Shown in pieces: positions 8,944 to 19,801 of a stretch of 53,831 nucleotides of DNA (position 1 is its first letter; each line of letters starts with the position of its first letter). The notes under the pieces are model-generated. The model did no database searches. It had not been told where the DNA came from and saw only the letters and a program-made list of their open reading frames with translations. This DNA comes from Candidatus Kaiserbacteria bacterium (GTDB taxonomy: Bacteria; Patescibacteriota; Minisyncoccia; Phycocordibacterales; JABAAK01): positions 1 to 53,831 of the forward strand of contig JAPOOC010000004.1 of NCBI GenBank assembly GCA_026713605.1. The letters are read 5' to 3'. The position numbers were made by a program, and so were the translations under genes.

Positions 8944-9210
8944 ATGCAAGCCATACACACGAAAATTATCGGATGCATACTATTCGCCATAGGGGTCATA
9001 ATGGCACCACTCATACCGTTTTGGGGCTTATTAGGTATACCACTACTCTTACTGTGGCGCGGCTTACCAGTACACGCAGTGCTATTCTCAGTACTCGTTG
9101 ACTCATTCTTGGCACCCGGAGGGATGTTGCCAATAGGGACATCACTCACCCTATACACCACACTTTCCCTGCCGCTGTGTCTCTACATACGATATACTAC
9201 TACCTTATGA
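8944..9210 (+). CDS. small integral membrane protein in the mreD position
   Basis: Hydrophobic 88 aa; stop overlaps the next ATG (ATGA, 9207-9210). Confidence 0.55.
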   Translation: MQAIHTKIIGCILFAIGVIMAPLIPFWGLLGIPLLLLWRGLPVHAVLFSVLVDSFLAPGGMLPIGTSLTLYTTLSLPLCLYIRYTTTL

Positions 9211-10901
9211 ATAATCCATTCCACAGCAACAAAAAACTATTCAAGAGAAGAAAGAAAACACAGCACGCCCACCTGCACAAAACATATGTTGATAAAGCAA
9301 TCTCTCATGAGGAGTTCTCAGTACGAGACGGCGAGGGACACCTGCGCAGATCCATAGCAACCCACCAACTCTACTGGCTCGGTGCCGTATTTATGCTATT
9401 CGTATTAGTAATGCTATTCCGAACTGCCCACCTGCAGATCGCAGAAGGGGATCACTATACCCGCATCAGTGAAAATAATTCATTCGACCGCATGGCAGTG
9501 CTACCAATCCGAGGGAATATATATGACAGACATGGCGCACCGATTGCATGGAATGTGGGAGAAGCCGGTAACACCGTGCCAGAGCGACGGTACCCAGGGG
9601 AAGGGTTCAGTTCACTCCTTGGATTCATACGATACCCAAAGCAGGACACGGGAGGAGAGTATTACCGCCGAGAAACAGAAGGAGCCGGAGGGCTGGAACA
9701 AAAGTATAATTTTTTACTTGCCGGAGGAAGCGGGTCAATTGTACTGGAAAAAGACGCAGGCGGCAGTGTCATCTCTGAGCTCTACATAGAAGAGCCAACA
9801 GACGGAGACACAGTAGAAGTGTCCCTCGACGCAGATATACAAAAGATGCTCTACACGGCAATCAAGCAAACAGCGGAAGAGCGAGAGTTTCAGAGCGGCT
9901 CCGGTAGCATGCTGGATGTGCAGACCGGCGAGATCATCGCACTCGTGTCATACCCCGACTTTGACAATAATATACTCGTGAACCGAAAGGAGAAAATACC
10001 AAAAAACTATCTCCAAGAGCAAGATGAAGGAGTGTTTGTACACCGAGCAGTTTCCGGACTATACAGCCCCGGCTCAACCGTGAAACCATTTTTCGCTGTT
10101 GCCGCACTGCAAGAAGAAATTGTCGCACCAACCGACATCATAACCAGCAAAGGGTCTATCACCGTGCAGAACCCATACGACCCAGACATTGTATACACCT
10201 ATAAAGATTGGAAACCACATGGCGACCTCACAATGTATGATGCAATAGCACAATCATCCAATGTGTATTTCTACTATGTCGGCGGCGGCTACGGACACAT
10301 AGATAAAGGACTCGGCATTGACCGTTTGAATTTCTATGCCGAGATGTTCGGATTCGGCCGACCAACAGCCATAGGCGTATTTCATGAACCAGAAGGATTA
10401 GTACCAAACCCAAAATGGAAAAAAGAGCGATACGGTGAAGGGTGGACTATCGGCGACACCTATAACACAGTCATCGGACAGTATGCATTTCAAGTAACAC
10501 CACTCCAGCTCGCCCGCGCAACAGCAGCAATCGCAAACGGCGGCATGCTTCTTGAACCACACTTAGAAAATAACAAACAGTCAAAAAAAGTCCGACTGGC
10601 AATAGCAGAAGAAAGTTTAGCAATGGTACGAGTAGGAATGAGAAAAACAATTGTAGAAGGAACAGCAAGAACACTGCACACAGACGCATATAACCTTGCG
10701 GCAAAAACAGGAACAGCACAGGTAGGCACAGACGGTCTCCTCAACTCCCTCCTAATCGGATTTTTTCCGTATGAAAAACCAGCATACGCCTTCGTCATTG
10801 TCATGGAGCGCAGCGAACAAGAAAGCGGCGCCATAGTCGCAGCAAGAAAATTCTTCAACGCAGTGATGACCAAGCACCCACACTACATGACCGGCAAATA
10901 G
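9207..10901 (+). CDS. mrdA: class B penicillin-binding protein (PBP2)
   Basis: YSPGSTVKPFFAVAAL (SxxK), QSSNVYFYYVGG (SxN), AAKTGTAQVG (KTG); N-terminal TM; start at MNNPFHSNKKLFKRRKK. Confidence 0.93.
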   Translation: MNNPFHSNKKLFKRRKKTQHAHLHKTYVDKAISHEEFSVRDGEGHLRRSIATHQLYWLGAVFMLFVLVMLFRTAHLQIAEGDHYTRISENNSFDRMAVLPIRGNIYDRHGAPIAWNVGEAGNTVPERRYPGEGFSSLLGFIRYPKQDTGGEYYRRETEGAGGLEQKYNFLLAGGSGSIVLEKDAGGSVISELYIEEPTDGDTVEVSLDADIQKMLYTAIKQTAEEREFQSGSGSMLDVQTGEIIALVSYPDFDNNILVNRKEKIPKNYLQEQDEGVFVHRAVSGLYSPGSTVKPFFAVAALQEEIVAPTDIITSKGSITVQNPYDPDIVYTYKDWKPHGDLTMYDAIAQSSNVYFYYVGGGYGHIDKGLGIDRLNFYAEMFGFGRPTAIGVFHEPEGLVPNPKWKKERYGEGWTIGDTYNTVIGQYAFQVTPLQLARATAAIANGGMLLEPHLENNKQSKKVRLAIAEESLAMVRVGMRKTIVEGTARTLHTDAYNLAAKTGTAQVGTDGLLNSLLIGFFPYEKPAYAFVIVMERSEQESGAIVAARKFFNAVMTKHPHYMTGK

Positions 10902-10936
10902 TCACCGCACCCAAAGAAAGCATATGCCCCACAAAA

Positions 10937-11407
10937 TCAACAAGAGATATCAACAACAGTAGGGCGAATAACAGACCTATAATCATCAGATTGCATAGCA
11001 ATACTGGCAGTGCGCTCACCACAGTTAAAGACAATGCGCTCATTAGCAAATAGCTTTTGATCAGCATACACCGTAAGATTAAAAAGCGTGCCAAACGGCG
11101 GCACCGCACCCGGCAGTATCCCATCAGTAATGTCAGCCAACTCCTCCCGAGTGGCAAAACGGATATTTTTTGTTTGCAACACCGCACGCAACTTACTATT
11201 TTTAAACTTCGTATCACCAGGAACAACCACCTGCACAAAACCAACATCAGTTGAAAGAATAAGCGCCTTCGCCCCTTCCGAAAGAGAGTAGTCCTTGCGT
11301 ATCACCGCCATCTCCTCGCTGGTAGTACCTGCCGCATGCTCCATAAAAGAATACGGAACCCCCTGCTCATCAAGAAGTGAGCGAATAGATGAAACAATAG
11401 GATGCAT
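10937..11407 (-). CDS. YbaK/EbsC-family aminoacyl-tRNA deacylase
   Basis: MHPIVSSIRSLLDEQGVPYSFMEHAAGTTSEEMAVIRK...KALILSTD...VVVPGDTKFKNSKLR...GAVPPFG. Confidence 0.88.
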   Translation of the reverse strand: MHPIVSSIRSLLDEQGVPYSFMEHAAGTTSEEMAVIRKDYSLSEGAKALILSTDVGFVQVVVPGDTKFKNSKLRAVLQTKNIRFATREELADITDGILPGAVPPFGTLFNLTVYADQKLFANERIVFNCGERTASIAMQSDDYRSVIRPTVVDISC

Positions 11408-11511
11408 ACAAAAACAGTGTACAGGGTTGCGGGGGGTTCAGGTGCGCCATATAATTCTGTTTTACTTGAAACGCTGAACCGTGGTTAACAGGTGTTGAGT
11501 AAGATAAAACA

Positions 11512-12111
11512 CTACTCATTTTCACGCTCACGCTTGAAATACTCACTCGAAATCCGTTGTTTGAGTTCAAATAGAAGGTGGGAAAAAATCGAATCTGAAT
11601 TATCTCCGTGAGGATCTGAAGGTCCTTCAGACAAAGTTCCTGCTTCAGCTTTTTCATAGGAGGAGTCATGCAGTTCGTTAGCAAGTTGTACATCATCCCA
11701 GGAAACATCGGAGAAATCAACATCTTCAAAATGGTCTGACAGAATCTGTGCCCGCTCATTATCGTTCCTATTCTTTGCGTAATAATACTCTCTCGTTCTT
11801 TCTTCTAGCTCCTGATATCCTTCGGGATATTTCCCCATCCGTGAAGAATCCTCTTGCATGTTGTAATAAAGAGTCAAATCTTCTCTTGAAGGTCTATCGT
11901 CTTCCCACAAGCCCTCATTCTTGTACGCACTGATAATCTCATCTAGCTTAAACTTTTCTCCCATTCTTTTTAAGCCGCTCTCAGTTCTTTCAAGCTCTTT
12001 TTCTTTTTCTTTAATTATTTGGGATAATTCTTTTCTCCTCTCTGCCATTAATTGATCAATTTCATTCCCCCCCCCTCTTTTTTCAATTTTTTTATTCTCA
12101 TTAAATTTCAT
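11512..12111 (-). CDS. hypothetical coiled-coil, acidic protein
   Basis: 199 aa, charged; no recognised motif. Confidence 0.6.
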   Translation of the reverse strand: MKFNENKKIEKRGGGNEIDQLMAERRKELSQIIKEKEKELERTESGLKRMGEKFKLDEIISAYKNEGLWEDDRPSREDLTLYYNMQEDSSRMGKYPEGYQELEERTREYYYAKNRNDNERAQILSDHFEDVDFSDVSWDDVQLANELHDSSYEKAEAGTLSEGPSDPHGDNSDSIFSHLLFELKQRISSEYFKRERENE

Positions 12112-12295
12112 ACTATATATAATTTCAACTTAATAATTATATAAATAGTATGCCATACCAAACGAGAAGTTACAGGAAGTTACAGTTTGGATTACCATGA
12201 AGTGCAATAATCACTAAAATTAGAATTTATTAACCACAACTTAGTACTTCAAGCGAGTCAACATCTTGTGTATTGTGAGAAATGCAGATACATCA

Positions 12296-12574
12296 CTACT
12301 TTGTGTCAATAGTCGCCATAGTACGATTCTTCGCCTTACCAGTAAAGTTTGTTTTCCGACGCGTGATAAACCGAACGACACCATCCTGCAGAGCAAACAG
12401 CGTGTGATCTTTACCAACACCGATACCTTTACCAGCAAGAATACGCAACCCCCGCTGCCGAACCAACACCTCACCAGTACGCACCTGCTGACCATCACCC
12501 CGCTTAATGCCGAGAAACTTGGGCTTTGAATCGCGTAAACTTTTTGCGGAACCTCCCGCTTTCCTATGTGCCAT
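12296..12574 (-). CDS. rpmA: 50S ribosomal protein L27
   Basis: [62 protein letters not shown]. Confidence 0.95.
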
Positions 12575-12595
12575 AATGCTATCAGTATACAGCAT

Positions 12596-12913
12596 ATGAA
12601 AGATTTTTACAACGAATGGTATGTGATAATAGTAGTCGTATTAGTAGGAATAGGCATGTTCATGCTCGGCGGACTATTCGTACACTCACTATACAAACCA
12701 GCAAAAGCCACAGCAGACATACACCTCAAACCACTGGCAGTTGAACAACAAAACACCAACATGCGACGAGTGTACGCCTCAAAACAAGGCAAACGCTACT
12801 ACCCCTGGTGGTGCGACGCAGGCAACACCATCGCCAAAGAAAACAAAGTGTGGTACAACACCCCAGAAAAAGCAAAAAAAGAAGGATACACCATCGCAAA
12901 AGGATGCCAGTAG
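12596..12913 (+). CDS. single-TM protein with C-terminal [14 protein letters not shown] module
   Basis: [78 protein letters not shown]. Confidence 0.75.
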
Positions 12914-12942
12914 CAAAATGAGATATACTAATACTGTAATCT

Positions 12943-13110
12943 ATGAAAGACATAACATTTCAGCACAAGGAGAACCGACTGCGCCCCGAAGTAGCCACAC
13001 GCATTGAAAAGGATAAAAAAGATTGGGAAGAAGGGCGAAGAGAAAATTTCTCAAAACCACTTACAGATACCGCAAAAATAGACACATGGCTTAATACACG
13101 AGCATCATAA
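12943..13110 (+). CDS. 55-aa ORF (X1), shares its first codons with the gene at 16067
   Basis: Below the track cutoff: MKDITFQHKENRLRPEVATRIEKDKKDWEEGRRENFSKPLTDTAKIDTWLNTRAS. First 26 nt identical to 16067-16092. Confidence 0.5.
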   Translation: MKDITFQHKENRLRPEVATRIEKDKKDWEEGRRENFSKPLTDTAKIDTWLNTRAS

Positions 13111-13152
13111 GGGGGTGTTGCTTGCTAATGTTGTTGTGGCAGAATATCAACA

Positions 13153-13983
13153 ATGGCGTTACGAAAAAACAATGGAGGCGGCATTGCGTTAATATCTGGT
13201 GACAAAGCCCATAAAGTTCTCCGGTATATTGCCAAATATGACAATCAGAGTAAGAAGACATCATCTCTCATGATTTATCCTGTGAGGGGGAAAGAAGACA
13301 CCAATCCGTACATCCTCAGGAAAATTTGTTCGGGTAAGGTGGAGCGTGAGGAAGAATCAAGCGCAAGGGGTCTGAAAATAAACTTTCACACAAGCGGTGA
13401 ATATCATATATCTGGCGGTGGTTTTAATAAGGGCAAGGGTGGGGGTAATCCATATAAAGCGCAAATAGCGTATAAACCCAATGCTCCCGGCTACTACCTG
13501 TCCCTTGCAGCAATAACCGATCACACCCGATGTCCAATTATTACAAATTTGAGGCAGGAGAGGAATAAGAAGATAGATATTCTATTTGAAATGCCGCCAG
13601 GCGGGGACGGGTGTGTGTTCATTGTGTTTATACGATTGAACAAAGGCGATGGGTACACAATACAAGGAAACACTGACAGGGGTCCAGGAGGTAGTGTGAC
13701 ATTAGATCCTGAATTAAAGGAAAGAATATGGTGGTATGTTAATGGTTTTTGTGTGCGACTTGCCGGTGGAAGCGCCTTTACTCTTAACAAAGACGGAATA
13801 GTTCCACAAGTTCTCGCAGAGGACATCTCTTCGAACGGCTGCATCTACTTAGTTTTGTGTATACCAGCGATACGCAGGGATAGGAACTTAGTGAACAGCA
13901 GAACATTAAAAAATGCGGTGATAGCACAAGTAAGTGAAATGGGCAGAGAAGTCACCACCCCATCACTTGTGTTGTTGTGGTAG
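13153..13983 (+). CDS. hypothetical protein (Y1)
   Basis: 276 aa, Gly-rich, no recognised motif; its C-terminal coding end is repeated at 16476-16540. Confidence 0.65.
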   Translation: MALRKNNGGGIALISGDKAHKVLRYIAKYDNQSKKTSSLMIYPVRGKEDTNPYILRKICSGKVEREEESSARGLKINFHTSGEYHISGGGFNKGKGGGNPYKAQIAYKPNAPGYYLSLAAITDHTRCPIITNLRQERNKKIDILFEMPPGGDGCVFIVFIRLNKGDGYTIQGNTDRGPGGSVTLDPELKERIWWYVNGFCVRLAGGSAFTLNKDGIVPQVLAEDISSNGCIYLVLCIPAIRRDRNLVNSRTLKNAVIAQVSEMGREVTTPSLVLLW

Positions 13984-14127
13984 GGACTTCTTATTTTTGT
14001 GATTATGCAGGAACTATCGCAACACCTTGGGCACCCTTTTCAAGCCATTCACATCTCATAGATCTCCAAATAATGTAGCAACAAGTAAATAAAATGGTAC
14101 TACTATGATTAGGTTCCCATAGGTACA

Positions 14128-15828
14128 ATGGATAACATGGTTACACTGAGCAACCTTTCTAACACATCTGCCCATATAGATTTTAGCGGTGCCTTAGCGG
14201 CATTCGGCTTAATTTTTACTGTATACCAACTTCGTAAACCCAGTTGGGAAATTGTTTTGCACATAAGAAGTTGGTGGCAGAGACACCTTGTTTGGATATT
14301 TGGTGGCATCGCCCTTTTGTTAGTGTTGATTAAAGCGGTGGCACCCCTATCTTCCAGTTTGGTTTTGTTTCTTGAGGTTGGGGCATATATCTCCTTCATT
14401 CTTTCCCCCTTATCGTTACTATATTTTTCCACAAAAACAAAGAAACTTTTTAAGGGAAGGGAGAGGAGGTTCTACGCAGAGATGAGTTCGGCAATTGCCA
14501 CAACAAATGATGACTACGCTCGCCCTGTCGTAAAAATACTGTTAGATAATCTGGATGACATCTGCCTATCCGCGAAAAAGTATTTTAATCACACGACAGG
14601 AGGTGAAAGCAAAGTGACAGAAGAAGAGAGAACAACCTCTTTAGCACGATCAGTGCTTAATGTGTTTCTAAGTGATGAATCAGTGGCGAAAATTCTTACA
14701 ACAAAAAATCTTGCCGCCCTTCGCCACCTTTTTGTTACTATACAGAAACACAATTTGGGCGATGAAATCGAAACAGGCCTCTCTAAGATATTTCACAATC
14801 TTTACAATGACAATGAATCATTCTTTTACAAACACCTTGACTATGTAGGTCTTTCAATCTCTTCCAGCATCTATAAAACCATCTTTGGTTCTAATGATTT
14901 TCTGAATAATTTTAACCCATACCCTCCTTTTTATTTTAGGGATAAACCTCCGAGTCCATTGAGTGTGAGAGTAATAGTACATGCTTTGTCTTGCGGAATA
15001 AGGACACACTTAACGAAAGGGAACGCACCTTTAAAATCCCTTAATCGTACAGCACCAAGAAATATCAACCTTGGCCTTGAACATCTTTCTGAAATTTTTA
15101 ATAGCACATGTTTAAAAATGAATATCAAGGAATCTCGCAATTCTGATGTTGGGTATTCAATGAAAGATTGGCGGGACATATTAAACACCATCGCTCTCTT
15201 TCTCGTCCACAATTACTCATTTTTAGCACGCAGGGAAAATGTGAATAAAAATGTGAAACGCATGGAGGGAGAAACTTCAGAAGCAGACTTTTACTCAAAC
15301 ATGACAATAAATGCCGGTATTGCGGCATCCTTGTGTGAAGCGATTAAATCACTTTCATGTGTCGAGAATTATAACTCCATACACTCCATCAATGTTAATT
15401 TGTTTCGCGGGTTAAGGGGGCACTATGAAAAATACAAAAAAGGATATGAGAAACCATTCGAGAATGCGTTGTGGAGAGAGATCAAAGATAATGTTGCACT
15501 TCGTGGCTATCCGGCAACATTAAGGACATATCTTGGCTTTATAGGGGTTCACCTTGTCAGCAAAGGAAGAGAGGGAGAGTGGATGAGTAACCAAATTGAG
15601 AGAGTCCGAAGATTGTTGTATATTGATTTAAAGCCTCTCATAGATAGGTGTGAAAAAATGATTGATAAAACCGACATCAAAGAAGCACTCTTACCGACTC
15701 ATTGTATGGACTACAGAAAGGGGAAATTTATTTATATATACCGCGGTGGATCGGAAAAAGAGATTGACCCGCCGAAAGATGGCGCCAAGTCCGCCTTCTT
15801 GGAAGGCATTGATGATCTAGCGCATTAA
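14128..15828 (+). CDS. hypothetical membrane protein with large helical soluble domain
   Basis: Hydrophobic segments within the first ~100 aa (HLVWIFGGIALLLVLIKAVAPL; LFLEVGAYISFILSPLSLLYF) then ~450 aa soluble. Confidence 0.7.
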   Translation: MDNMVTLSNLSNTSAHIDFSGALAAFGLIFTVYQLRKPSWEIVLHIRSWWQRHLVWIFGGIALLLVLIKAVAPLSSSLVLFLEVGAYISFILSPLSLLYFSTKTKKLFKGRERRFYAEMSSAIATTNDDYARPVVKILLDNLDDICLSAKKYFNHTTGGESKVTEEERTTSLARSVLNVFLSDESVAKILTTKNLAALRHLFVTIQKHNLGDEIETGLSKIFHNLYNDNESFFYKHLDYVGLSISSSIYKTIFGSNDFLNNFNPYPPFYFRDKPPSPLSVRVIVHALSCGIRTHLTKGNAPLKSLNRTAPRNINLGLEHLSEIFNSTCLKMNIKESRNSDVGYSMKDWRDILNTIALFLVHNYSFLARRENVNKNVKRMEGETSEADFYSNMTINAGIAASLCEAIKSLSCVENYNSIHSINVNLFRGLRGHYEKYKKGYEKPFENALWREIKDNVALRGYPATLRTYLGFIGVHLVSKGREGEWMSNQIERVRRLLYIDLKPLIDRCEKMIDKTDIKEALLPTHCMDYRKGKFIYIYRGGSEKEIDPPKDGAKSAFLEGIDDLAH

Positions 15829-16066
15829 TCTAAGGAACGATATTGTGAAAACGCATAAATACATGACTTGACACACGAGCATGTCTATCTCCCAATAGTC
15901 AAACCTCGTATTACTACGGCAAGCCCCTGCCTTTTCTTTTGCGATGCACTCGTTTCCTACTTGCACTGCTACACACCGTCGACCTTGTCTTTCATATTGA
16001 CTTTATAATGTTGGTGTAGATGGATGGGGCAACCCACTGCCTGCATTAACAAGATAAAAATCAATT

Positions 16067-16480
16067 ATGAAAGACATAACATTTCAGCACAAAGGGAGCG
16101 GCATTAAGATCACCTTCTCTTCCAATGTGCCAAAAAGAACAGACCTTTCACCAGCAGAGCTGAAAAAGCATGAGGAAGAGAGTGAAATGATGGAAAGCAA
16201 AACAAGTTTTCACTGTCCTACTTGCATGTTTCACAAGCCAATAAGGGATAGGGAACTGACAATGGCACTTGATTGTGCAACAATCAATCCAGAGGTTAAG
16301 AAGTCCTTGTACGAATATCTGTGTATTCAATGTGCCACCAACATTAAAGGAGGTGCGTATAACTGGTATACATGGATACAGAAACTTATCCGCTCAGGTC
16401 TGCGTAACTGCTCTGAGGGCAGAAAAAACATGATAAAAGATGCGCATGATATGGGGTATAAGGTTGTAGAAGAAAATTAA
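16067..16480 (+). CDS. hypothetical protein with putative zinc-binding Cys pairs (X2)
   Basis: MKDITFQHKGSGIKITF...FHCPTCMFHKP...YEYLCIQCATN. Confidence 0.65.
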   Translation: MKDITFQHKGSGIKITFSSNVPKRTDLSPAELKKHEEESEMMESKTSFHCPTCMFHKPIRDRELTMALDCATINPEVKKSLYEYLCIQCATNIKGGAYNWYTWIQKLIRSGLRNCSEGRKNMIKDAHDMGYKVVEEN

Positions 16481-16540
16481 AAAATGCAGTGACAGCACAA
16501 GCAAAAGAAATCACCACCCCATCACTTGTGTTGTCGTGGT
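16476..16540 (+). pseudogene. remnant of a second copy of the 13153 gene
   Basis: KNAVTAQAKEITTPSLVLSW* in frame versus KNAVIAQVSEMGREVTTPSLVLLW* at 13911-13983; identity continues past the stop (GGACTTCTTATNTTTGTGATT). Confidence 0.75.
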
Positions 16541-16798
16541 AGGGACTTCTTATCTTTGTGATTGGGTTGCTATATGTGTCTGGTTTTTCCTCCCGCTGAT
16601 TAGTTACTGTCATAGTTACTCATGGTATTGCATACAAAAAAGTCAAGCATTTCACCACAAGGAAAAGTCAAGCTAGATTTTCCTTTTAACTGTAAGGCAT
16701 TCTTTAGTTTTCCAGTGGAGGATTTTAATGGCTATTATGAAGGGTTACAATAAATAAGAAAGTACTGCTTATTGGGGTCGGTGCATCGTATATTTCTT

Positions 16799-18076
16799 AT
16801 GACAAGAGAGCGTAATAAAAATACTAGTTGTTTAATAGACATGGGAACGGGTGACTATGCAGATATTGAAAAATTTTTTAATAAATTAAATGAAGATCAA
16901 AGCCACTTTGTTAATTCAAACGATGAATCAACTCCTATAGGGTGTGTTAAAGAGATGGTGGACACCATACCAGATAGTTTTTGGAGGAAAAAAAATTTAA
17001 AAATACTTGATCCTTGTGCTGGTAATGGTAACTTTCATGCATATATTTTTAATAAAAAAACAAAGATAGAAAATTTAATTTTTAATGAGATAAATGATAA
17101 GAGAGTGAAAAACATAAGAAAAATATTTGGAAATAGCGCCAATATAAGTTTAAAAAACTTTTTAGAATTTAATGAGAGCGAGGAATATGATTTGGTGGTT
17201 TCTAATCCGCCATACGCAAAGTTTAATTCAAAGGGAAGGACTGCAAAAAATCATAATCTTTCAAGAGATTTTATAAGGAAAGCGATAAAGATAACAAAAA
17301 AGAATGGCTTTATACTTTTTATCGTCCCTGATAATTGGATGTCTTTTGCAGACAGAAATGATGTAGTCGAAATTTTGAGTCAATATCAGTTTTTGCATTT
17401 AAATATTCATGGAGCAAAGAAATGGTTTCCCAAGATAGGATCTTCATTTTCTTGGTTTTTGTTGCAGAAAACAAAAAATAGCAAACCATTTACTGTTGAA
17501 AATTTTTACAAAGTAAAATCTACTGAAAGGGTAAAGATTGATCCTGGTGTTCGTTTTATTCCGCTATACTATTCACCAGTTGTAAAATCTATCATTGATA
17601 AAACAATCAATGCTGATAATGAAAAGTATCAAATTGAAACTTCAAGCGATCTACACAAGCATACAAAAAAAGATTTGCTTTCTGTCCATAAAAACAATAT
17701 ATATAGGTATAAGGTGATACATACCCCAACTCAAGTTGTGTGGAGTAAAAGACCACATAAATATCAAAGTGGATATAAAGTTTTCATATCTCTCACCAAT
17801 CAGTACAGTACTTTTATTAATCGAAATTGTGGTGCGACGCAGAGCGTTGCATTTATTCGATGTAAGAGTAAGGAGGAAGCAGAGCAAGTGAAGGGAGAGT
17901 TAGATAGCCCTATTTACTCTTTCTTAAACAATGTTACAAGATATGGCAATTTTAATAACATACGAGTGCTACAGCATTTCCCTAAAATTAGAAGTTTCCT
18001 GCTCACAAAAAAAGAAAGAAGTTTTGTTGAGACATTTAACAAAGAATATTACAAGAGGATGTCAACAAGGAAATAA
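16799..18076 (+). CDS. adenine-specific DNA methyltransferase (NPPY class)
   Basis: ILDPCAGNGNFHAYIF SAM motif; DLVVSNPPYAKF catalytic motif; lower GC than its neighbours. Confidence 0.9.
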   Translation: MTRERNKNTSCLIDMGTGDYADIEKFFNKLNEDQSHFVNSNDESTPIGCVKEMVDTIPDSFWRKKNLKILDPCAGNGNFHAYIFNKKTKIENLIFNEINDKRVKNIRKIFGNSANISLKNFLEFNESEEYDLVVSNPPYAKFNSKGRTAKNHNLSRDFIRKAIKITKKNGFILFIVPDNWMSFADRNDVVEILSQYQFLHLNIHGAKKWFPKIGSSFSWFLLQKTKNSKPFTVENFYKVKSTERVKIDPGVRFIPLYYSPVVKSIIDKTINADNEKYQIETSSDLHKHTKKDLLSVHKNNIYRYKVIHTPTQVVWSKRPHKYQSGYKVFISLTNQYSTFINRNCGATQSVAFIRCKSKEEAEQVKGELDSPIYSFLNNVTRYGNFNNIRVLQHFPKIRSFLLTKKERSFVETFNKEYYKRMSTRK

Positions 18077-18080
18077 TATT

Positions 18081-18596
18081 TTAGGTTTGCGTGCAGAATA
18101 TTGGCATTTTATCCTCCTTTTTCATCTTTTTTAAAATACTCTTCTCCCACTGTTTTGGCGGCAATGATATTTTTTCCTTTTTTCCGAATACCAATCGGTC
18201 TATTTTTGGCGCAAAGAACGCGTACACCTCCACCTCCTTTTTGAAATTTAAAAGAGATTGCAGTACAAAATAGTTTGTTGTCGAACATGTCCCTCTTTTT
18301 CTCGCCTTGCCCTTACCGCAATTATACGACTGAACTCTTTCTTTGAAATTCTGTGTAGTACTTCCAACCTTTAAAAGGTTCTTTCCTATGACGAATATGT
18401 AAACCAGCCCTCTCCGTCGCATGTCTGAATCCTTGGCATCTTCCCTTGGCATAATTTCAAGGCACTCCTTTTTGTTGTTTGGGCGTATGTTGCAAAGAGG
18501 TTTAAATTTTGACTTATTTGGAAGATCATTAAAGCCCAGGGTAATTTTCTTAAGATCATTGATTTTTAAAGGATTGTCGTTTCTATTTTTTGACAT
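18081..18596 (-). CDS. GIY-YIG-like nuclease-fold protein (paralog 1)
   Basis: GLVYIFVIGKNLLKVGSTTQNFKERVQSYNCGKG...STTNYFVLQSLL...VEVYAFFAP; convergent with the methyltransferase, 4-nt gap. Confidence 0.65.
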   Translation of the reverse strand: MSKNRNDNPLKINDLKKITLGFNDLPNKSKFKPLCNIRPNNKKECLEIMPREDAKDSDMRRRGLVYIFVIGKNLLKVGSTTQNFKERVQSYNCGKGKARKRGTCSTTNYFVLQSLLNFKKEVEVYAFFAPKIDRLVFGKKEKISLPPKQWEKSILKKMKKEDKMPIFCTQT

Positions 18597-18605
18597 ACTG
18601 TATTT

Positions 18606-19151
18606 TTATCTTTGAGTGCAAAGCACCGGCTTCCTGCCTTCTTCTGCCAGCGCTGCCAATATCTTTCGTTCCCAGTGTTTTGGGTTTGGTTCAACATCCA
18701 TCACAGTACCAAATATATCAGCGGCTTCTGTTTCTGGAAAAAATGCATATACATCAATAACCTTACCAAGCTTAAGAAATGATTGAAGACAGAAATAGTT
18801 TGTCGTTGAATTTTTTCCTGCTATTCTATACCTTGTTTTCCCTGTGTTATATGACTGCACTCTTTTTACAAAGGGGGTGATTGTTGATCCTACCTTTAGA
18901 ATTTTCCCATCTAAAACAAAAAGATACACTAACCCACTCCTTTTATCCACATTAAAGTCATCCGCATCTGTCTCATCAATCACCTCCAACTTCTCGTCTT
19001 TCTGGTTAGGCCTTAATTTGCAGAGGAAAGAAAAGTAATCACGATATTGAAAATTCTCTAGATATAAGTCAACCTTCTCTATCTCCTCACTCGTTACAAA
19101 ATTTTCATTTCTATTTGAGTATTTGTTGGCACTATGTTTTTTCTTTGTCAT
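18606..19151 (-). CDS. GIY-YIG-like nuclease-fold protein (paralog 2)
   Basis: GLVYLFVLDGKILKVGSTITPFVKRVQSYNTGKT...STTNYFCLQSFLKL...IDVYAFFPE; colinear with paralog 1 over most of its length. Confidence 0.65.
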   Translation of the reverse strand: MTKKKHSANKYSNRNENFVTSEEIEKVDLYLENFQYRDYFSFLCKLRPNQKDEKLEVIDETDADDFNVDKRSGLVYLFVLDGKILKVGSTITPFVKRVQSYNTGKTRYRIAGKNSTTNYFCLQSFLKLGKVIDVYAFFPETEAADIFGTVMDVEPNPKHWERKILAALAEEGRKPVLCTQR

Positions 19152-19332
19152 ATTTTTAGGAATCTGTTATGCACCAAAAACCACTTTTAAATCATTGGCT
19201 GTTGTCAGATGGTTATATGATATAAGTGTTTGCTTGGAGTGTCAAGATGTTTTAGCAGAAATCCAATTCTGCTCATTAAGAAAATCAGTTTCCACACAAA
19301 AGCACTGGTACACTACTCTTAAGCAAAGATGT

Positions 19333-19596
19333 ATGAAAAACAGTAAGACAGCAGAAAGAAAGTTTTCAATGACAGTGTCTGCACCGCACACTTTCGCGCA
19401 GGAGGAGCGTGACTTTTTGTCACAGGTAGTTACAGAAGAAATAAAAAAAGGTGCTGATATTATTGTTGATGAGGTGTTTGAAGAGAGAAACGCTGATGAG
19501 TATATCCTAAGTGGCGATAGTGTGTCTGCAGAAAGGTTGGCAGAAGCAATGGCGGACTATGTTGAATGCAAAGTTGTGCTCAAAGAGGTGCAGTAG
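19333..19596 (+). CDS. hypothetical small protein
   Basis: MKNSKTAERKFSMTVSAPHTFAQEERDFLSQVVTEEIKKGADIIVDEVFEERNADEYILSGDSVSAERLAEAMADYVECKVVLKEVQ; start uncertain. Confidence 0.5.
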   Translation: MKNSKTAERKFSMTVSAPHTFAQEERDFLSQVVTEEIKKGADIIVDEVFEERNADEYILSGDSVSAERLAEAMADYVECKVVLKEVQ

Positions 19597-19721
19597 GAGA
19601 GCAGTGCGGATCCGTCAGAGTCAGTAGTGTGTTGTCAAGGGGGTTAGGGGTAACTTTTACACAACGGCGGGGATAAAAAAATCCTATGGAATATAGACAT
19701 TTTTTGTTTTTGTGCAAAATT

Positions 19722-19755
19722 GTGGAAAAAAGTGGGGATATGTGGAAATAAATGG
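19722..19755 (+). promoter_or_regulatory. MraZ operator-like direct repeats
   Basis: GTGGAaaaaa-GTGGGgatat-GTGGAaataa-ATGG with exact 10-bp period, 47 nt upstream of the mraZ ATG. Confidence 0.8.
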
Positions 19756-19801
19756 TCTATAGTAGAAGCGTGGTGGGGAAGAAGTACCCTCTTGCGTACC
19801 T

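What the first reader, a model, noticed from the sequence alone, without database searches (positions are those of the whole stretch)
16799..19151. NPPY methyltransferase convergent with twin GIY-YIG-like genes: candidate atypical R-M or defence module
The methyltransferase (DPCAGNGNF, NPPY) ends 4 nt from two tandem paralogs sharing GLVY(I/L)FV...LKVGST...F..RVQSYN.GK...STTNYF.LQS.L....(V/I)(E/D)VYAFF. This matches the GIY-YIG/T5orf172 layout, but the usual catalytic Glu position appears as Gln (LQS) in both. Two diverged copies suggest a heterodimeric nuclease, or one active and one regulatory subunit. Lower GC fits horizontal acquisition.
Basis: partly seen in the sequence, partly recalled or inferred. 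Interest (0 to 1): 0.65.

Follow-up and report, generated by a model that had tools for sequence, protein, structure and literature searches.

The report
Hpy188I-type restriction-modification system, twin nucleases
This is a bacterial DNA-cutting defence system closely related to the known Helicobacter Hpy188I restriction system, carried by a bacterium with a very small genome and unusual only in having two diverged copies of the cutting enzyme beside one protective methyltransferase.

Summary
The genes are as described: a gamma-class adenine methyltransferase (16799-18076, +) ends 4 nt from two tandem minus-strand genes (18596-18081, "R-A"; 19151-18606, "R-B"), 43% identical. Both nucleases match restriction endonuclease Hpy188I over nearly full length (phmmer E 2e-35 and 2e-39; AlphaFold models find the Hpy188I crystal structures first). 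The methyltransferase is 59% identical to the one beside a gene identical to R.Hpy188I, 58% in its specificity half. So this is a Type II restriction-modification system of the Hpy188I family, most likely acting on TCNGA (inferred). Two nuclease genes for one methyltransferase is unusual; none of the ten or so relatives examined had two. The copies are as far from each other as from Hpy188I and equally conserved, so this is neither a recent duplication nor an obvious decaying copy. Heterodimer versus homodimers is undecided. The genes lie in an 8.9-kb low-GC island absent from two same-genus genomes. Known kind, modest new variant.

The parts
16799..18076 (+). M: gamma-class N6-adenine DNA methyltransferase, M.Hpy188I homologue (425 aa; alternative TTG start at 16772)
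   Evidence: PADLOC MTase_II PDLC03273 E 3e-166 full length; Pfam Eco57I E 2e-13; 58.8% identity to the MTase next to R.Hpy188I (L025), 62% catalytic half, 58% specificity half
18081..18596 (-). R-A: Hpy188I-family GIY-YIG restriction endonuclease (171 aa), all published active-site residues kept (Y66 K76 R87 Y91 E151 Q170)
   Evidence: PDB phmmer Hpy188I 3oqg E 1.6e-35; PADLOC REase_II PDLC03493 E 9e-39; AF2 pLDDT 90, Foldseek 3oqg E 2.7e-17; residues
18606..19151 (-). R-B: second Hpy188I-family GIY-YIG restriction endonuclease (181 aa), all published active-site residues kept (Y76 K86 R97 Y101 E161 Q180); first gene of a probable R-B/R-A operon (9 nt between them)
   Evidence: PDB phmmer Hpy188I E 2.1e-39; PADLOC REase_II E 1e-41; AF2 pLDDT 87, Foldseek 3oqg E 5e-17; residues
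19217..19245 (-). Promoter-like site TTGACA-17-TATCAT (11/12) upstream of R-B; inferred only
   Evidence: Consensus scan; promoter-like matches in the region are no more frequent than in shuffles (13 vs mean 11.2)
10902..19801 (.). Low-GC island between a penicillin-binding-protein-like gene and mraZ that holds the R-M genes; the two same-genus genomes have only a ~0.68-kb interval with a GreA-like gene there
   Evidence: Synteny; GC 0.39 vs 0.47

Best explanation
An Hpy188I-family Type II restriction-modification system. The methyltransferase most likely marks the adenine of TCNGA on both strands. R-B and R-A are GIY-YIG nucleases, probably made from one operon, that dimerise on unmodified TCNGA and cut both strands. 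In Hpy188I the metal-binding Glu149 of each active site is supplied by the partner subunit (my memory of the 2011 structure paper, which is not held here), so homodimers of either copy and an A-B heterodimer would all have complete active sites. I think both copies are active nucleases kept in check by the same methylation. Shown: homology, predicted fold, intact active-site residues, gene order, absence of the island from two same-genus genomes. Inferred: TCNGA, activity, dimer composition, phage defence.
For: Matches of both R proteins to Hpy188I and of all three proteins to PADLOC Type II models; AF2 models match Hpy188I crystal structures first, with TM 0.66-0.72 yet rmsd about 11.8 A, as expected if one segment is swapped in the crystal dimer; published active-site residues kept in both; MTase 59% identical to the M.Hpy188I equivalent, 58% in the specificity half; MTase-REase linkage in relatives (PMC2630997); R-A and R-B each keep 53 of 72 positions invariant in five relatives, so neither looks decayed; island absent from G001 and G002. 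TCNGA for Hpy188I: PMC4081073, PMC2749054; m6A at TCNGA in H. pylori: PMC4450513.
Against: No activity or methylome data. TCNGA is not avoided in this genome (observed/expected 0.88, same as relatives without the system), so restriction leaves no compositional trace, though a system that methylates its own sites need not leave one. The REases are only 44-45% identical to Hpy188I, so a changed specificity is possible, although M constrains it. His76 of Hpy188I is Ser in both copies (other relatives have Gln there).
Confidence: 0.85

Rival explanations
1. The functional nuclease is an obligate A-B heterodimer: each active site combines Tyr/Lys/Arg of one copy with the Glu of the other, possibly reading a slightly asymmetric version of TCNGA (as Bpu10I and BbvCI read asymmetric sites).
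For: Two tandem copies 9 nt apart in one probable operon; divergence between them as great as from Hpy188I (43 vs 44-45% identity) with equal conservation of both; R-A is more basic than R-B (pI 10.0 vs 8.6).
Against: Both copies keep every published active-site residue, so no need for a partner of the other kind is visible. Type IIT heterodimers generally come with two MTases (PMC4081073); here there is one. The relatives seen have one REase, which must work as a homodimer.
Confidence: 0.25
2. One copy is a spare or a regulator/decoy on its way out, or the two were picked up separately and only one works.
For: A groups with a REase from a viral contig (support 96/94) rather than with B; holding A and B together is weakly rejected, p-AU 0.045-0.048, so two separate acquisitions are possible.
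Against: Both frames are intact; each keeps 53 of 72 family-invariant positions and all published active-site residues.
Confidence: 0.2
3. The system recognises a different site (for example AGNCT, which this genome strongly avoids).
For: AGNCT is at 7% of expectation in 215 kb of this genome, TCNGA at 88%.
Against: M is 58% identical to the M.Hpy188I equivalent in its specificity half; AGNCT is also low in same-genus G002, which lacks the system (0.34); the genome has several other MTase genes that could account for it.
Confidence: 0.04

Closest known systems
Hpy188I restriction-modification system (Helicobacter pylori; R.Hpy188I PDB 3OQG/3OR3, TCN^GA)
   Same: Both nucleases homologous over nearly full length with the same active-site set; MTase 59% identical; genes adjoin
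   Different: Two REase genes instead of one; R genes convergent with M instead of overlapping downstream of it; His76 is Ser; found in a 0.6-Mb genome of another phylum
Type IIT heterodimeric enzymes (BbvCI, Bpu10I)
   Same: Two related REase genes side by side
   Different: Unrelated nuclease family (my knowledge); those generally have two MTases and asymmetric sites (PMC4081073); heterodimer not shown here
T4 endonuclease II (2WSH), UvrC N-terminal domain, and the GIY-YIG restriction enzymes Eco29kI/Cfr42I
   Same: GIY-YIG fold; endonuclease II and UvrC are the next Foldseek matches
   Different: No match by sequence search of the PDB at E up to 1; Eco29kI was not among the Foldseek matches shown; other families

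Membership tests
Hpy188I family of Type II restriction endonucleases | Sequence homology to R.Hpy188I along the chain | tested here: met
   E 1.6e-35 and 2.1e-39, query residues 1-171 of 171 and 20-180 of 181
Hpy188I family of Type II restriction endonucleases | Active site Y63, K73 (Lys in place of the YIG Tyr), R84, Y88, E149, Q169 | tested here: met
   All six present in both copies (PMC2630997)
Hpy188I family of Type II restriction endonucleases | GIY-YIG fold as in 3OQG | tested here: met
   AF2 plus Foldseek: best matches Hpy188I, E 5e-17 and 2.7e-17; prediction, not a solved structure
Hpy188I family of Type II restriction endonucleases | Linked gamma-class MTase of the M.Hpy188I type | tested here: met
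   58.8% identity to the MTase beside a gene identical to R.Hpy188I; stops 4 nt apart
Hpy188I family of Type II restriction endonucleases | Cysteine pair at 90 and 101 (most members of the R.Hpy188I branch) | tested here: inconclusive
   R-A has both; R-B has T and N; relatives L003, L023, L024 also lack C101
Hpy188I family of Type II restriction endonucleases | Cuts TCN^GA, blocked by the cognate methylation | not testable with these tools
   Needs an enzyme assay or a methylome
Type IIT heterodimeric REases | Two different subunits with two different catalytic sites acting together | not testable with these tools
   Two paralogous genes present, assembly unknown
Type IIT heterodimeric REases | Usually two MTases, one per strand of an asymmetric site | tested here: not met
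   One MTase gene at the locus
T5orf172 / Pfam GIY-YIG domain | Pfam match above the curated cut-off | tested here: not met
   R-A 18.3 bits to GIY-YIG (cut-off 22.6); R-B none; no T5orf172 match

The most novel reading that the evidence does not exclude
A heterodimeric GIY-YIG restriction enzyme (I know of no described example): two long-diverged Hpy188I-type subunits that complete each other's active site in trans and are kept in check by a single methyltransferase.
Probability: 0.2. Interest if true: 0.45.

Novelty: new variant of a known kind. Interest (0 to 1): 0.28.

Why it matters
It extends the small Hpy188I family, so far described mainly from Helicobacter, Campylobacter and marine metagenomes, to a reduced-genome bacterium, and gives a natural case of two divergent GIY-YIG restriction subunits with one MTase, in which the trans-supplied catalytic Glu could be tested by mixing subunits. 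Otherwise it is an ordinary restriction-modification system.

Tried and rejected
T5orf172 or generic GIY-YIG: at or below Pfam cut-off, while Hpy188I gives E 1e-35 or better. Glu-to-Gln loss: wrong column. Recent tandem duplication: identity only 43%, A+B sisterhood not recovered. TCNGA avoidance as a trace of activity: none, 0.88. AGNCT as the target: also depleted in a relative without the system. Viral-contig scans with the MTase alignment and with P0001, P0002 and P0003 alone found nothing, and the phage and plasmid collections hold no match. Other tandem-R members: none among the relatives found. The 2011 Hpy188I structure paper is not held, so DNA-contact residues were not compared. dN/dS of each copy was not attempted: no close relatives were found.

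Full report
OBSERVATION. The methyltransferase (M) runs 16799-18076 (+; alternative TTG start 16772). Four bases on, in the opposite direction, lies R-A (18596-18081) and, upstream of it on the same strand, R-B (19151-18606), with 9 nt between R-B's stop and R-A's ATG. R-A and R-B are 43% identical over 168 residues. GC is 31% for M and 37% for both R genes against 47% for the window.

IDENTITY. PADLOC gives Type II matches over nearly the full length of M (PDLC03273, E 3e-166) and of both R proteins (PDLC03493, E 9e-39 and 1e-41). A sequence search of the PDB finds Hpy188I for both: E 1.6e-35 for R-A, 2.1e-39 for R-B. AlphaFold2 models (pLDDT 90 and 87) match Hpy188I crystal chains first (E 2.7e-17 and 5e-17; 43-45% identity), then T4 endonuclease II and, more weakly, UvrC. 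TM is 0.66-0.72 but rmsd about 11.8 A: most of the chain fits and some segment lies elsewhere, which is what a segment swapped between subunits in the crystal would give. From memory of the 2011 structure paper (not held), Glu149 of Hpy188I is indeed donated in trans.

ACTIVE SITE. PMC2630997 names Y63, K73, R84, Y88, E149 and Q169 for Hpy188I. R-A has Y66, K76, R87, Y91, E151, Q170; R-B has Y76, K86, R97, Y101, E161, Q180. Position 76 (His in Hpy188I) is Ser in both copies and Gln in some relatives; Ser is common at this place in other GIY-YIG nucleases (my knowledge). So both copies look catalytically whole.

METHYLTRANSFERASE AND SPECIFICITY. One genome found in the search around L004 (L025) holds an R gene identical to R.Hpy188I (against the PDB sequence); its neighbouring MTase is 58.8% identical to M, 62% in the catalytic half and 58% in the specificity half. 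M.Hpy188I acts on TCNGA (PMC2749054), and TCNGA is m6A-methylated in H. pylori (PMC4450513). I therefore infer TCNGA; this is not tested. TCNGA is not avoided in 215 kb of the genome (observed/expected 0.88; 0.86-0.90 in relatives).

RELATIVES. Relatives are rare: only one other genome of the same family (G005) among 148 relatives, and none besides the own genome in 380 genomes across the phylum; 7 of 397 genomes of the phylum of L004; one MAG labelled Epsilonproteobacteria (L004); nine viral contigs, several of them a more distant branch. Where M and R were both found (L003/L029, L004, L012, L020, L023, L024, L025, L028, and L026 with a fragmentary M) there is one R gene each; L027 has R alone. 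Most are M then R, overlapping or nearly so; L012 is R then M; L020, a distant viral contig with a frameshifted R, has R and M tail to tail as here. The twin R arrangement was seen nowhere else, in a small sample.

ORIGIN OF THE TWINS. R-A and R-B are as distant from each other (43%) as from Hpy188I (44 and 45%). In an 8-row tree R-A pairs with L012 (96/94; L012 read across its frameshift), and holding R-A and R-B together is weakly rejected (p-AU 0.045; 0.048 with more rows), while without the L012 C-terminus it is not (0.295). So either an old duplication or two acquisitions; not a recent copy. Each keeps 53 of 72 positions that are invariant in five relatives, 45 of them shared: equal constraint, no sign that one is decaying.

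SETTING. In the same-genus genomes G001 and G002 a homologue of the 574-aa ORF at 9177-10901 (a penicillin-binding-type protein by position and paralogy to the 577-aa ORF; not family-searched here) is followed after about 0.68 kb, holding a GreA-like gene (my reading of its sequence), by mraZ and rsmH. In the window the same two flanks are 8.9 kb apart (10902-19801), GC 39%, holding the R-M genes and several ORFs of no known family; the GreA-like gene is not found in the window. This supports horizontal acquisition into this lineage.

MECHANISM. M protects TCNGA; the nucleases cut unmodified, incoming DNA. With the Glu supplied in trans, A-A, B-B and A-B dimers could all work. One MTase argues for a symmetric site and against a Type IIT asymmetric site, since such systems usually carry two MTases (PMC4081073). 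Dimer composition needs experiment.

VERDICT. An Hpy188I-family Type II R-M system (confidence 0.85), a new variant by virtue of two diverged REase genes. Ordinary in kind; the heterodimer reading is open (0.2-0.25). The rival statements on dimer composition are refinements within the best explanation, so their confidences do not add up with it to 1.

Noticed in passing
Own genome G000, 215-kb sample including the whole window (1-53831): Extreme under-representation of ACGT (14 seen, 804 expected, both strands; none in the 53.8-kb window) and AGNCT (46 vs 693), with GGCC 0.30 and TCGA 0.35; variable in relatives G001, G002, G004, G005. Suggests strong restriction pressure from other systems; AGNCT is not a specificity I recognise.
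   Followed up: partly
window 12942-14004 and 16066-16563: Two ORF regions share a near-identical start (MKDITFQHK, 32 nt, 94%) and a shared tail (58 nt at 95%, 44 nt at 84%..LKNAV.AQ..E..TTPSLVL.W, out of frame in the second copy) around unrelated middles; the leader occurs only twice in the genome. Looks like a cassette or a diversified gene pair.
   Followed up: partly
window 14128-15828: 566-aa ORF with an N-terminal hydrophobic, apparently membrane-spanning part and no family match in Pfam, NCBIfam or PHROGs, inside the same island.
   Followed up: no
window 10902-19801: The island takes the place of a GreA-like gene found just before mraZ in same-genus genomes; that gene is not found in the window.
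   Followed up: partly
G000, contigs C1, C4, C7, C9: Seven PF01555 (N6/N4 DNA methyltransferase) matches in a 0.6-Mb genome: many modification genes for its size.
   Followed up: no
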